DNA of 33,202 nt, taken from assembly GCA_011605775.1 (NCBI GenBank), contig JAAOZN010000075.1, positions 1 through 33,202 of the forward strand. Direction: 5' to 3'. Origin of the DNA: Nitrososphaerota archaeon. Its GTDB lineage: Archaea > Thermoproteota > Nitrososphaeria > Nitrososphaerales > JAAOZN01. Positions 8,551 to 30,112 of the stretch are shown one piece after another; position 1 is the stretch's first letter, and each line of letters begins with the position of its first letter. The notes beneath the pieces were generated by a model. The model saw nothing but the letters and a program-made list of their open reading frames with translations. It was not told the DNA's origin and made no database searches. The position numbers were made by a program, and so were the translations under genes.

Positions 8551-8586
8551 TTTGTAGCTAGGGTGCCGCTTAACAGTTGATGGGGC

Positions 8587-9073
8587 GTGGTTTCAATAGC
8601 GCTTCCCAAAAAGATTGAGGAGAGGTCGAAAGAGGAGGCTGAGAGGACTGGTGCCTCAGAGGAGGAGCTTATTGTTGAAGCGCTAGCGAAGGCGTTCAAT
8701 GAAAACCTTGACCCAGAGGTAAGAATCGAGATCCACCTAAAACTTTCAGAAAAATTCCTGAAGGAGGCGGAAGAACTTTTGAGAAAAGGCGATCTCACCC
8801 AGGCATCAGAGAAGGCTTGGGGGGGCTGCTTCTCAAATCGTAAAGGCTTTCGCTGCAAAAGAGGGGAGGGAGCTTAGAAGCCACGGAGAGCTACACCAAC
8901 AAGTCGCCAAGATCGACAGACAAGCTAAGGGTGAGGGGATAAGGTCGCTTTGGCAGTCTGCTGGTATGCTTCATCAGAACTTCTATGAAAACTGGCTTCC
9001 TCAGGAGATGGTCAAAGCTAACATTGAGGATGTGAAGAAGTTTGTGGAGAAGATGAAGATGCTTCTAAAATGA
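8587..9073 (+). CDS. RHH-PaREP1 (HEPN-like) protein, frameshifted at a G7 run
   Basis: A GTG at 8587 (MVSIALPKKIEERSKEEAER) opens a ribbon-helix-helix-like segment (1-45) followed by LKLSEKFLKEAEELLRKGD and ASEKAW, the hallmark of the PaREP1 family, whose helical fold is related to HEPN domains. In the seven-G run 8819-8825 the frame breaks and the reading frame then stops at 8877. With six Gs it continues as AWGAASQIVKAFAAKEGREL and SHGELHQQVAKID and ends at TGA 9071-9073, giving a normal-looking 161-residue protein. The downstream codons are well preserved, so the lesion is recent, a slippage site, or a sequence error. No toxin or antitoxin partner is visible nearby. Confidence 0.7.
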
Positions 9074-26120: not shown

Positions 26121-26757
26121 AGAAGCGATAGCCAAAGAGCCGCTGAACATACTGGTCAACCCAGACCTCATCAGGAAGCAGAAGCCTTGGAGGATTGATA
26201 TAGCATACCTCTTAAACCTCTTTCTTAACTTCATATCTAAGCTGGAGAGTTTAGATCTTCGGCTCTGCGGCTCAGCAGCCTTATCCTCAGCACTAATCTA
26301 CCGCCTAAAGGTAGAAGCACTCTTCCTCAGCGAAAGAATGAGCGAAGAGAAGAGACCAGTCGATGTAGGTGACATACCCTTCATACTATCGATGCCCATA
26401 AGATACGAGCTACACACAACATCTGTTGAGGATCTGATAGCAGCCCTACAGAGGCTGGTGGAGGAGATCACAGCCAGAACCGAACCCGAGCGACCTAAGC
26501 CTGTTAGTAGAGAGCCTGTTGTGGAGATCGACCAATTCATAAACCGGCTTAAAGAGAGCCTAGAGCCATTTAAGGCTTCGCTGCTTGAGATGTTGAAAAG
26601 CGGACCCATCCTATTCTCAACGCTGGTTAAAGGTAAGAGTGTGGTGGAGGCTGCGAGGGTATTCATCTTCCTACTCTTCCTAGCGTCTGATGGCGTAGTC
26701 TTTTTAGAGCAGATCGAGGAAGATCTGTTGATTACTGGTGCAGCAGGGTTTGTCTGA
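26113..26757 (+). CDS. scpA: Segregation and condensation protein A (kleisin ScpA)
   Basis: Kleisin that bridges the two SMC heads. The 214-residue protein has the N-terminal ScpA segment KQKPWRIDIAYLLNLFLNFI and DLRLCGSAALSSALIYRLKVEALF, a variable middle, and a C-terminal winged-helix with LKSGPILFSTLVKGKS. It is shorter than bacterial ScpA, as is usual in archaea. The TTG start overlaps the smc stop (TTGAGTAA), consistent with coupled translation. It in turn overlaps scpB by 20 bp. Confidence 0.9.
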   Translation: MSKEAIAKEPLNILVNPDLIRKQKPWRIDIAYLLNLFLNFISKLESLDLRLCGSAALSSALIYRLKVEALFLSERMSEEKRPVDVGDIPFILSMPIRYELHTTSVEDLIAALQRLVEEITARTEPERPKPVSREPVVEIDQFINRLKESLEPFKASLLEMLKSGPILFSTLVKGKSVVEAARVFIFLLFLASDGVVFLEQIEEDLLITGAAGFV

Positions 26758-27271
26758 TGAAGGTGAGGCTAAGGCGAGGATCGAAGCTGCGCTCTATGTG
26801 TCTGGTAGACCTTTGTCTGCTGAGGAGCTCGCTAAAGCCGCTGGGTTTACTTCGAAGAGGAGAGCGATAAGGCTGGCGCGCTCACTTATGCAGTCTTATA
26901 GCTCCTCTGAGCACGCTATACAGATAGTTGAGTACTCGGGGAACAGGTTTGCGATGCAGCTGAAGCCTCAGTTCGCTAAGGTTGCTAAGCGCTTCTCTAT
27001 GAAGCCGCTTCTCCCGCAATCAACCCTAAAGACGCTTACATACATAGCCTTCTTCCAACCGATCACATCCCAGGATCTGGCTGAGAAGCGTGGGCCACAG
27101 GTCTATCAGCATATAAAGCAGCTCGAGCAGATGGGGTTCATAGAGGGAGAGCCGTCTGGGAAGACGAAAATCTACCGAACCACACCGGCCTTCGCAGAAT
27201 ACTTTGGTCTAAGCCAAGATGTAGAGCAACTTAAAAAAGAGCTACAAGCGAAGGCTATGAAGCTGATCTAG
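26738..27271 (+). CDS. scpB: Segregation and condensation protein B (ScpB)
   Basis: Winged-helix dimer that binds ScpA in the SMC complex. The 177-residue protein shows RIEAALYVSGRPLSAEELAK, LMQSYSSSEHAIQIVEYSGN, LPQSTLKTLTYIAFFQPITS and GPQVYQHIKQLEQMGFIEG, the two tandem winged-helix domains of the family. The GTG at 26738 is the earliest start; a TTG at 26750 is possible. It completes an smc-scpA-scpB operon with both junctions overlapping. Confidence 0.9.
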   Translation: MQQGLSDEGEAKARIEAALYVSGRPLSAEELAKAAGFTSKRRAIRLARSLMQSYSSSEHAIQIVEYSGNRFAMQLKPQFAKVAKRFSMKPLLPQSTLKTLTYIAFFQPITSQDLAEKRGPQVYQHIKQLEQMGFIEGEPSGKTKIYRTTPAFAEYFGLSQDVEQLKKELQAKAMKLI

Positions 27272-27335
27272 CAAACCCTTACTGAAATCACTTTCCTCTA
27301 AATATAGGGGAACAGTCTCATCAGCGTAGCACAAA

Positions 27336-27345
27336 CGATATATAG
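27336..27345 (+). promoter_or_regulatory. TATA box of the AIPR gene
   Basis: CGATATATAG predicts a transcript start near 27367, practically at the ATG of a 10-codon reading frame at 27365 and about 25 nt before the AIPR ATG at 27390. Confidence 0.5.
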
Positions 27346-27364
27346 TGAAGTGCAGAAATAAGCC

Positions 27365-27397
27365 ATGTTACTTTGGGATGAAGTAGCAGATGTATGA
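27365..27397 (+). other. Possible 10-codon leader ORF before the AIPR gene
   Basis: ATG at 27365 reads MLLWDEVADV and stops at TGA 27395-27397, overlapping the AIPR ATG at 27390 in another frame. It begins where the leaderless transcript is predicted to start, so it could couple or limit translation of the AIPR gene. So short a frame may be chance. Confidence 0.2.
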
Positions 27398-29127
27398 GAA
27401 AATTAAAGAAGAAATAAAACAACCATACTACCAACAGAATTTTGATAACGATGGTCAAAGATTCGTGGCCTGGTATTTACGAAATATTCATTTGAGGGAC
27501 CCTAATCAGACGAAATACGACATCACCGATGGTCCTGATGATAAGCAGATTGATGCCATAGTGATAAATGACGACAATTCGACTGTTTATGTCGTTCAGG
27601 GGAAGTTCATAGGAGCTTCGAGGGTTGATGCCGAACCTCTACACGAAGTTCTTTCTTTGTGGTTACAATTGAGGAATTTAGTTAAGTTGCAAGAAACGGC
27701 TAACGAAAAGCTGAAGAGCAGACTAGCTGAACTTTCAACCGCGCTGGAAGAAGACTATGCCGTAATATTTGAACTCGTCACAACTGCAAACTTGACCGAA
27801 ACTGCAAAAAAAAGACCTTAAGGCATTCCAAGAAGCATTAGCAAAAGACGAAAATCTGCCTGCATCTCTTGTTCTTGTTGACAGTGACGAATTGAAAAGA
27901 AGATATGAAATGGTGTTAGAGCGCGAGCTTCCTTCCCTTGACTACTCACTCACTCTTGAGCAAGGAAAATACCTACATATGCAGCTCGCTGGAACACAGG
28001 TGATTATCGCAGCAATACCTCTTAGAGAATGTGTAAGATTACCAGGCATAAGGGATGGCACTCTTTTTCGGAAGAACGTTAGACAATTCATGGGTCTTAA
28101 CAACACTGTGAACAAGAGTATTAAAGCTACGATTTACAGCGATAGGCATAGAGATTTCTTCTTTTACCATAATGGGATCACGGCGATCTGCGATAAGTTA
28201 GAGCTAAATAATCACATTTTAACGCTGAGAGGACTAAGCGTGGTGAACGGATGTCAGTCTCTGAACACAATATTGGCTTGTAGCGAAAAAGTAAAAGAAC
28301 TTGATGACACTTATGTTCTATTTAGGTTTTACGAAATACCACAACGGGACAGAGCGGACAGAATCAGCATTTCTACTAATTTTCAGACCGCTGTTAAACC
28401 CAGAGATTTAAGGAGCAACGATAAGAGAGTGCTGAACCTAAAGAAGTCATACGAGCAAAGATATCCGCAGGGTTACTTTATTACGAAAAGGGGGGAGGAA
28501 GCACCAGCTGACAAAGACAAAGAATATGTGGTTGATCTCGTAGATGTGGGTAAGTGGTTTATCTCATGGCACTCACAAAGACCGAACTTTGCATACAGCG
28601 AGACAAGAATCTTTGATAAGTTTTTTGAGCAGCTGTTCAAGAGAGAATATGATCCTGAAAATGTTCAAGCTTTGAATTTTTGGATGAAAGAAATAATAAA
28701 AGGTTGGACGGGTGAAAATCCTTTTGGGCTGAACGAATCGTTACTAGCGATGAAAGCTTACGCGCCATACCATGTCCTGTTTGCGGTATCCCAGTTCTTT
28801 GCCATTGCCAGTAATTGTTCAGATAGGGTTCCTAGTCCTAAGGTAGTGTATGAGCAAGCAAAGAGTAAGAACGCTGTTGAACAAATCGTCAAGTTTGCAG
28901 CTTCGTCTGTTAACGTTGCTTTAGAAATTGCCGTCGATGAACATTCATCTTCTCATAAAATATTTAGTCCCCAAAACTGGATTAAAGCCAAAACATCTTT
29001 AAGCGGGATCAAGACCGTCATAACGACTCAATTGAAGATGCTCCATACCTTTCCAGGAGGCAAGGAACTTGAAGAGGTCTTGAAAGTTCCAAAAGAGGCA
29101 TTCGAATACAGGTGGGAGGCAGACTAA
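27390..29127 (+). CDS. AIPR-family abortive-infection/phage-resistance protein, frameshifted at an A8 run
   Basis: Predicted defence protein. The first frame (27390-27821) carries a restriction-endonuclease-like core: D55 in DDKQIDAIVI and Q70-x-K72 in VYVVQGKF, a PD-(D/E)XK variant. The second (to TAA 29127) has the AIPR domain: RQFMGLNNTVNKSIKATI, FFFYHNGITAICD, LSVVNGCQSLNT, ISISTNFQTAVKPRDLRSND. The frames are separated by one surplus A in 27806-27813. With seven As the protein continues AKKDLKAFQEALAKDENLPA without a break, for 578 residues. An in-frame ATG at 27892-27910 could start only the C-terminal part. Codon use is more AT-rich than the flanking scpB and S8e genes, fitting transfer. 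Confidence 0.8.
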
Positions 29128-29140
29128 TCCCCTTTTAGAA

Positions 29141-29155
29141 CAACCAAGATGGTTG
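29141..29155 (+). terminator. Short hairpin after the AIPR gene
   Basis: CAACCA and TGGTTG pair around an AGA loop, 14 bp after the stop codon, inside a wider imperfect repeat (AATCCCC and GGGGTATT). No strong T-run follows, so termination is only suggested. The rest of 29156-29357 holds no gene I can support; it contains two GTTAATAG direct repeats (29259, 29270) 11 bp apart. Confidence 0.3.
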
Positions 29156-29357
29156 GGGTATTAAACCGATAGGGGAGAAGAATCAGAGATCCCGAAGCTC
29201 TCTCTCAATCGGCTCAGGAAAATGAAAAAAGACAATCCTACCAGAGAGTATTAAAATAGTTAATAGGATGTTAATAGAGTTGTTAAGATATGGTCAAGGT
29301 TATAAGAGGACACTGAGGTTTGTGGGTCTTTACACTCCTACCAAATGCAAGCTTGCT

Positions 29358-29588
29358 TCAACTTATCTTGGAAAGTAGGTGCTCTACTGTTTCTCTTCTA
29401 AATTTTGCCAGCTCAAGAAGCGCGTTCATCAAACCTTTCTTCGACGCATCGAGTATTTCGACTGAAACCACCCACCCCTCATCATAGCCTAAGATGCCGT
29501 CGTTATCAAGCAGCTCCTCATTCACTAAAGCTCCCTCTCTAACCTTAAGGATCTGAACGTCAGCCTCAGGACCGTGTTGAACGATCAA
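29358..29588 (-). CDS. Small conserved-looking protein of unknown function
   Basis: A 76-residue acidic protein (MIVQHGPEADVQILKVREGA, GYDEGWVVSVEILDASKKGL) with a C-terminal helix, LLELAKFRRETVEHLLSKIS. I do not recognise the family. Start is TTG at 29586-29588: no other start codon lies between it and an upstream in-frame stop, and GGGAG lies 6 bases before it. Frame, codon use and the SD-like element look like a real gene. It is divergent from the S8e operon and may share its promoter region. Confidence 0.55.
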   Translation of the reverse strand: MIVQHGPEADVQILKVREGALVNEELLDNDGILGYDEGWVVSVEILDASKKGLMNALLELAKFRRETVEHLLSKIS

Positions 29589-29682
29589 ACCCGTCTCCCA
29601 GACCTCTTTCTTCTTGCGCCAGCATCCTAAAAAATTCTTTTAGTAGACAGATGCTTATCGGGGCAGCAAGGAACCCTACAAC

Positions 29683-29728: not shown

Positions 29729-30112
29729 ATGGTGAAGGCTGTAGAGAACCTACTTAAGAGAAAGATTACAGGCGGTAGGAGGAAAGCAGCGCGCTCAAGA
29801 AGGGCGTATGAGCGAGACCGATACCCCGCTGAGACCACGATAGGTGAAGACGAGATTGTGATCCGCAGGGTAAGAGGCGGTAATATTAAAGTCGCTGCGA
29901 AGAGTGTTCAATACGCCAATGTTGTTGATGAATCAAAGAAGGTTGTGCGTGTAAAGATTCTTGGTGTGGCTAAGAACCCAGCTAACAAAGACTACGAGCG
30001 TAGACAGGTGATAACTAAGGGGACGATCATAAAGACTGAGCTGGGGTTGGCTAAAGTTACATCCAGACCGGGGCAAAATGGCGTGGTAAATGCTGTGCTT
30101 GTGAAAAGTTGA
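29729..30112 (+). CDS. rps8e: Small-subunit ribosomal protein eS8
   Basis: Archaeal/eukaryotic-type 30S protein. The 127-residue product has KITGGRRKAARSRRAYERDR, the PAETTIG motif, RRVRGGNIKVAAKS, ANVVDESKKVVRVKILGV, NPANKDYERRQVITKG and TSRPGQNG, all diagnostic of S8e. The N-terminus before TGG is unusual (MVKAVENLLKRK), whereas most S8e start with a short WQG-type segment; in-frame codons upstream offer nothing better. The end overlaps SRP19 by 4 bp. Confidence 0.93.
   Translation: MVKAVENLLKRKITGGRRKAARSRRAYERDRYPAETTIGEDEIVIRRVRGGNIKVAAKSVQYANVVDESKKVVRVKILGVAKNPANKDYERRQVITKGTIIKTELGLAKVTSRPGQNGVVNAVLVKS

What the first reader, a model, noticed from the sequence alone, without database searches (positions are those of the whole stretch)
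27390..29127. Two-part AIPR defence gene with nuclease-like N-terminus split at an A8 run
A PD-(D/E)XK-like core (D55, Q70-x-K72) and an AIPR domain are in two frames, joined cleanly if one A of 27806-27813 is dropped. Both parts are well preserved and the in-between sequence is fully coding in the shifted frame. The full protein might be made by polymerase slippage, limiting a toxic defence nuclease, or the gene may be phase-switched off. It has its own promoter and stands between core genes scpB and S8e.
Basis: partly seen in the sequence, partly recalled or inferred. Interest (0 to 1): 0.55.

Follow-up and report, generated by a model that had tools for sequence, protein, structure and literature searches.

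The report
Frame-broken archaeal AIPR nuclease gene
A horizontally acquired antiviral-type nuclease gene in an archaeal draft genome is split by a one-base frame break at a run of eight A's; it looks like an ordinary recent break or a sequencing error, not a programmed switch.

Summary
The sequence observation is right. A8 at 27806-27813 separates a 143-codon frame (27390-27821) from an open frame ending at 29127; read through, they give a 578-aa protein colinear with 46 intact relatives. It is a stand-alone fusion of an N-terminal PD-(D/E)XK nuclease domain (D55, Q70-x-K72 invariant in all 46) and an AIPR domain that may have a ParB/Srx-like fold. The 2.4-kb piece carrying it is absent from both sister species, whose scpB is followed directly by S8e: horizontal gain. 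The read-through protein keeps all 85 residues invariant in the relatives, so the break is very young or not real. Programmed slippage is not supported: none of the 48 relatives readable at the site has A8, the -1 frameshifting known in archaea gives the wrong frame, no RNA structure follows, and the break falls inside the nuclease domain. The same assembly has four other clear homopolymer frame breaks, one in this contig (PaREP1 gene, G7 at 8819-8825). Most likely a sporadic homopolymer indel: a real loss-of-function mutation or an assembly error, which only raw reads can separate. New member of a known family; low interest.

The parts
27276..29676 (.). horizontally acquired insert between scpB and S8e (2.4 kb, GC 41.5%)
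   Evidence: Sister genomes G001 and G002 align on both sides and lack it; boundaries by blastn, approximate
27390..27821 (+). frame-0 part of the AIPR nuclease gene: PD-(D/E)XK motif D55, Q70-G71-K72; ends in a stop just after the A8
27806..27813 (+). A8 run, the position of the frame break
   Evidence: one of six A8 runs in 1.62 Mb
27814..29127 (+). second-frame part: end of nuclease domain, AIPR domain (possibly ParB/Srx-like), C-terminal helical region
29358..29588 (-). 76-aa DUF2283 ORF inside the same insert
   Evidence: PF10049 E 7.8e-5, 23.2 bits vs cut-off 23
26738..27271 (+). scpB, left flank
   Evidence: PF04079 E 3.3e-35
29729..30112 (+). ribosomal protein S8e gene, right flank
   Evidence: PF01201 E 9.8e-37

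Best explanation
A stand-alone AIPR-family defence nuclease gene was acquired by horizontal transfer and sits between scpB and S8e. The intact protein (inferred) uses its AIPR domain, probably of ParB/Srx type, to bind a nucleotide or DNA-linked signal and to gate the N-terminal PD-(D/E)XK DNA nuclease. In this assembly the gene is interrupted by a sporadic one-base length change at an A-run, inside the nuclease domain: either a recent inactivating replication-slippage mutation (about 0.45) or a homopolymer assembly error in an intact gene (about 0.37). No programmed read-through is needed. Shown: gene identity, horizontal gain, position of the break, absence of decay elsewhere, lack of conservation of the A-run, other homopolymer breaks in the same assembly. 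Inferred: biochemical activity, antiviral role, and which of the two sub-cases holds.
For: 46 of 50 relatives are single intact ORFs colinear with the read-through protein. None of the 48 relatives readable at the site has A8. The read-through protein has 0 deviations at 85 invariant positions, and dN is 0.14-0.18 against its three closest relatives with saturated dS in both halves. The insert is absent from G001 and G002, and 1 of 400 class genomes (G000 itself) has a match at E<=1e-60. Other homopolymer frame breaks in G000: A8 in a NucS_C gene, A7 in an integrase-like gene, G7 in a PaREP1 gene of this contig, C6 in a molybdopterin oxidoreductase gene. Other relatives are independently broken (4 of 50: foreign insertion, nonsense codon, N-terminal loss, internal deletion). 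The GeneTack paper (PMC3711429, passages) classes isolated frame breaks confirmed by homology as sequencing errors or indel mutations.
Against: A8 is rare here (6 in the genome; about 76 expected from base composition alone), and two of the three A8 runs inside genes (judged by eye) are breaks in nuclease genes, which could hint at something selected. Most of the broken genes look accessory, while in-frame A7 runs such as the one in SMC are intact. Sister genome G001 shows no break, but numbers are small: 0 breaks with 25 spanning runs of 38 checked, against 4 clear breaks and 46 spanning runs of 94 in G000.
Confidence: 0.82

Rival explanations
1. RNA polymerase slippage on the A8 makes a minority of transcripts in the joining frame, so that a low dose of the nuclease is made.
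For: A-run exactly in the frame overlap; both halves preserved. Deinococcus IS elements are said to use runs of eight As (PMC1088944, passages).
Against: A-run absent from 48 of 48 readable relatives, including the 73%-identical ones, which make the protein in one frame. In a large proportion of bacterial genomes the length selected against is nine (PMC1088944 abstract). The break lies inside the nuclease domain, so the short product would not be a complete domain.
Confidence: 0.08
2. Phase variation: the A-run switches between lengths in the population, turning the defence gene on and off.
For: Homopolymer in a defence-type gene; several other genes of the genome are out of frame at homopolymers.
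Against: A8 is short for a DNA phase-variation tract (from general knowledge), no second allele is visible, and no other strain of the species was found.
Confidence: 0.07
3. Ribosomal frameshifting of the fucA1 type known from Saccharolobus solfataricus.
For: Archaeal precedent at an A-rich heptamer, with full-length sister genes having one A fewer (PMC8211752, passages).
Against: That mechanism is -1; this gene has a +1 step, so the slippery heptamer leads into the wrong frame. No stem-loop downstream (folds more weakly than its shuffles, z +1.5).
Confidence: 0.02
4. The gene is now a working two-subunit system made from two ORFs.
For: Both ORFs are long and well preserved.
Against: The cut lies within helix 137-152 of the nuclease domain; the first downstream start is a TTG at 27892, about 70 nt past the stop, with no clear ribosome-binding site seen by eye; no relative has this arrangement.
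Confidence: 0.01

Closest known systems
AIPR (Pfam PF10592) / AbiU (PADLOC PDLC02357)
   Same: C-terminal domain matches well above cut-off
   Different: AIPR/AbiU1 proteins have been described with an N-terminal HEPN domain (PMC3506569, passage); here the N-terminus is PD-(D/E)XK. The PADLOC match covers model positions 243-512 only.
FokI / MspJI / EndoMS PD-(D/E)XK nuclease domains, Mrr_cat PF04471
   Same: predicted fold of residues 1-180 (VIA Z 10.1, 8.3, 7.2); D..QxK residues invariant
   Different: 11-14% identity only; no solved relative by sequence
ParB/Srx superfamily: ParB-N, DndB, SspE
   Same: residues 199-336 align with ParB N-domains (Z 5.8, rmsd 3.2, 97 residues) and SspE (Z 4.2); the DndB N-domain has been placed with AIPR (PMC3506569)
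   Different: Z below 8, so only suggestive; Dnd/Ssp genes were not looked for
fucA1 of Saccharolobus solfataricus (PMC8211752, passages)
   Same: archaeal gene split in two frames at an A-rich run, full-length in relatives
   Different: fucA1 uses a -1 step and has a putative stem-loop; this gene has a +1 step and none

Membership tests
AIPR PF10592 | domain score above the curated cut-off | tested here: met
   128.3 bits vs 25; 43 of 43 relatives scanned also match
PD-(D/E)XK nuclease | D...(D/E/Q)xK catalytic residues conserved across the family | tested here: met
   D55, Q70, K72 invariant in 46 of 46 intact relatives
PD-(D/E)XK nuclease | restriction-endonuclease-like fold | tested here: met
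   AlphaFold2 model of the relative L011 (pLDDT 84.6, pTM 0.46); VIA Z 10.1 to FokI over 142 residues. Against: Foldseek alone had no PDB hit at E<=0.001
PD-(D/E)XK nuclease | DNA cleavage activity | not testable with these tools
   needs protein
ParB/Srx superfamily | ParB-N fold | tested here: inconclusive
   Z 5.8 to ParB-N domains, in the range the tool calls common
AbiU / abortive infection system | phage defence phenotype | not testable with these tools
   no assay; PADLOC sequence match only
programmed frameshift or slippage gene | slippery site conserved in homologues | tested here: not met
   0 of 48 readable relatives have A8
fucA1-type -1 ribosomal frameshift | -1 step joins the frames | tested here: not met
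   frame step is +1
fucA1-type -1 ribosomal frameshift | downstream stem-loop | tested here: not met
   z +1.47 over 27814-27893
phase-variable gene | tract length differs between cells or strains | not testable with these tools
   no reads, no second strain found

The most novel reading that the evidence does not exclude
This archaeon holds several accessory and defence-like genes (AIPR nuclease, NucS_C nuclease, PaREP1, an integrase-like gene) in an off state at homopolymer runs and switches them by tract slippage, a contingency-locus style of defence regulation in archaea. In the NucS_C gene the A8 even forms an in-frame A_AAA_AAA heptamer whose -1 step joins the frames.
Probability: 0.07. 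Interest if true: 0.65.

Novelty: new member of a known kind. Interest (0 to 1): 0.18.

Why it matters
It corrects an attractive but unsupported reading: a split defence nuclease need not be a regulated one. The useful by-product is a clean description of a horizontally mobile nuclease-AIPR fusion family: 46 intact full-length copies across bacteria and archaea, 85 invariant residues, a clear nuclease domain and a possible ParB/Srx-like regulator. It is a single-gene candidate for testing how AIPR proteins act.

Tried and rejected
Tried without result: phmmer of the C-terminal part and a profile search with A1 against PDB sequences (nothing, then two hits at E 0.65-0.69); plasmid and phage collections (no match at the limits used, 1e-40 and 1e-20); exact DNA of the site in viral contigs (none); tRNA and Rfam scans of the window (none).

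Considered and rejected: a defence island or operon partner. The 20 neighbour proteins scanned, from 11 of the 50 relative loci, are mixed (transposases, HNH, helicases, housekeeping, unknown) with no recurrent partner. Mis-binning of the contig: rejected because both flanks are syntenic with sister genomes.

A first codon-usage scan for frame breaks was too weak, did not report the known break and was replaced by an open-frame scan. Of the raw candidates I dropped L072, L097, L122 and L129 as adjacent separate genes or gene starts by eye, and kept L114/L141 (G8, MEDS/PadR) as uncertain. Ascertainment: relatives were found with the C-terminal part as query, so copies lacking it are under-counted. 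Alignment A1 leaves out 3 of 46 intact relatives (L026, L032, L051) as near-duplicates. One G7 run of G000 (C46:5725) was listed but not fetched. An earlier count said 13 G7 runs for G001; the right number is 11 of 19.

Full report
What is there. The window is the whole of contig C75 of a 107-contig archaeal draft genome, G000 (1.62 Mb, 99.58% complete, 3.89% contamination). The run A8 at 27806-27813 lies where a 143-codon frame (27390-27821) gives way to a second open frame that ends at 29127. The frames overlap in 27796-27818. The second part is an AIPR protein (PF10592, E 6.4e-37; PADLOC AbiU, E 2.7e-34).

Relatives. A search of species genomes gave 49 loci and of viral contigs one more. 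In 46 of these 50 the gene is one intact reading frame, colinear from end to end with the read-through protein of the window. Closest are two Methanophagales archaea and a viral-collection contig at 73% identity; others are from Bacteroidota, Bacillota, Ignavibacteria, Thermoplasmata and more (record titles), so the gene moves widely. Among 60 genomes drawn as relatives, 8 have only distant AIPR proteins (E 7.9e-20 to 5.0e-10), and the two same-genus genomes have none. Of 400 genomes of the class only G000 itself has a match at E<=1e-60.

Horizontal gain. In both same-genus genomes (G001, G002) scpB is followed directly by S8e. The alignments stop at window 27276 (27244 for G002) and resume at 29677 (29675 for G002). 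The 2.4-kb insert is poorer in GC (41.5%) than most of the flanks (about 47-49%), and also holds a small DUF2283 ORF on the other strand.

What the protein is. D55, Q70, G71 and K72 are among 85 residues invariant in all 46 intact relatives. AlphaFold2 on the intact relative L011, with an alignment of 43 sequences, gave pLDDT 84.6 and pTM 0.46. Foldseek found nothing at E<=0.001 in PDB. The second-look aligner placed residues 8-180 on FokI (Z 10.1, rmsd 3.3, 142 residues), AF1548 (Z 8.5), MspJI (Z 8.3) and EndoMS (Z 7.2), and residues 199-336 on ParB N-domains (Z 5.8) and SspE (Z 4.2). I read this as a DNA nuclease gated by a ParB/Srx-like nucleotide-binding AIPR domain. The fold of the first is well supported, that of the second only suggested, and the activity is inferred. 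The break at residue 141 lies in helix 137-152, inside the nuclease domain, so the picture of two domain-sized parts does not hold.

Age of the break. The read-through protein deviates at 0 of 85 invariant and 5 of 158 nearly invariant positions. Against its three closest relatives (L060, L011, L012) dN is 0.14-0.17 in the first part and 0.18 in the second, while dS is saturated. There is no decay: the break is very young or not real.

Is it programmed? Of the 48 relatives whose sequence at the site could be read, none has A8; the longest run is A7 in L025, in frame. A programmed site would be expected to be conserved. The step is +1, so the -1 mechanism described for archaeal fucA1 (PMC8211752, passages) leads to the wrong frame. 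Downstream RNA folds more weakly than its shuffles (z +1.5). The length at which slippage-prone A/T runs are selected against is nine in a large proportion of bacterial genomes (PMC1088944, abstract and passages), though runs of eight are discussed for some IS elements.

Is the break special in this genome? Nearly all runs of A or G of seven or more listed for G000 were collected with flanks (the window's own read directly; one G7 run not fetched): 94 distinct runs, 46 inside spanning frames of 150 aa or more. Four of the 94 sit at clear frame breaks: this one; an A8 in a NucS_C gene (C64; PF01939, E 1e-6); an A7 in an integrase-like gene (C33; no Pfam match, named by eye); and a G7 at 8819-8825 of this same contig, in a PaREP1 gene whose halves match PF05942 positions 2-32 and 31-115. 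Among shorter runs, a C6 break splits a molybdopterin oxidoreductase (PF00384 positions 1-220 and 253-352). A G8 between MEDS and PadR parts is uncertain. In G001, 38 runs were checked (all its A8 runs, 11 of its 19 G7 runs and some A7 runs), 25 of them in spanning frames, with no break; the numbers are too small to call the difference significant, and I ran no test on it. Homopolymer breaks are thus not peculiar to this gene in this assembly.

Breaks elsewhere in the family. Four of 50 relatives are also damaged, none at an A8: foreign sequence in place of the catalytic core (L014), a nonsense codon near residue 37 (L057, which also runs off its contig), loss of the first 168 residues (L048), an internal deletion (L059). 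Sporadic loss of this gene is ordinary.

Verdict. A sporadic homopolymer indel in a horizontally acquired defence-type nuclease gene, either mutation or assembly error. The GeneTack study treats isolated, homology-confirmed frame breaks in the same way (PMC3711429, passages). In print: the literature searches returned few papers on AIPR; I saw passages of PMC3506569, PMC2292703, PMC9122126, PMC3710099 and PMC10853773 and no description there of a PD-(D/E)XK-AIPR fusion, but these searches are too few to say that none exists.

Noticed in passing
window 8581-9070 (+), G7 at 8819-8825: A PaREP1-family gene is also split by a frame break at a G7 run in this contig; the two halves match consecutive parts of PF05942.
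   Followed up: yes
L068 1196-2208 (-), G000 C64:1825-1832: NucS_C-domain gene split at A8 with an in-frame A_AAA_AAA heptamer; the -1 step joins the frames, as in archaeal fucA1. Its C-terminal part has no match in 60 relative genomes.
   Followed up: partly
L088 979-3007 (+), G000 C21: Molybdopterin oxidoreductase gene split at a C6 run.
   Followed up: partly
L141 6392-6402, L146 1533-1541, L149 1681-1690: Long G tracts (G11, G9, G10) each preceded by four or five A's, in G000 and G002, at least one just ahead of an ORF; possible length-variable upstream tracts.
   Followed up: no
G000 whole genome: A8 is rare: 6 occurrences against about 76 expected from base composition alone (dinucleotides not controlled).
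   Followed up: partly
L014 3280-3560: In a Methanothrix copy the nuclease core is replaced by a foreign GC-rich sequence while the AIPR frame stays open.
   Followed up: no
window 29358-29588 (-): DUF2283 ORF carried in the same insert as the AIPR gene.
   Followed up: partly
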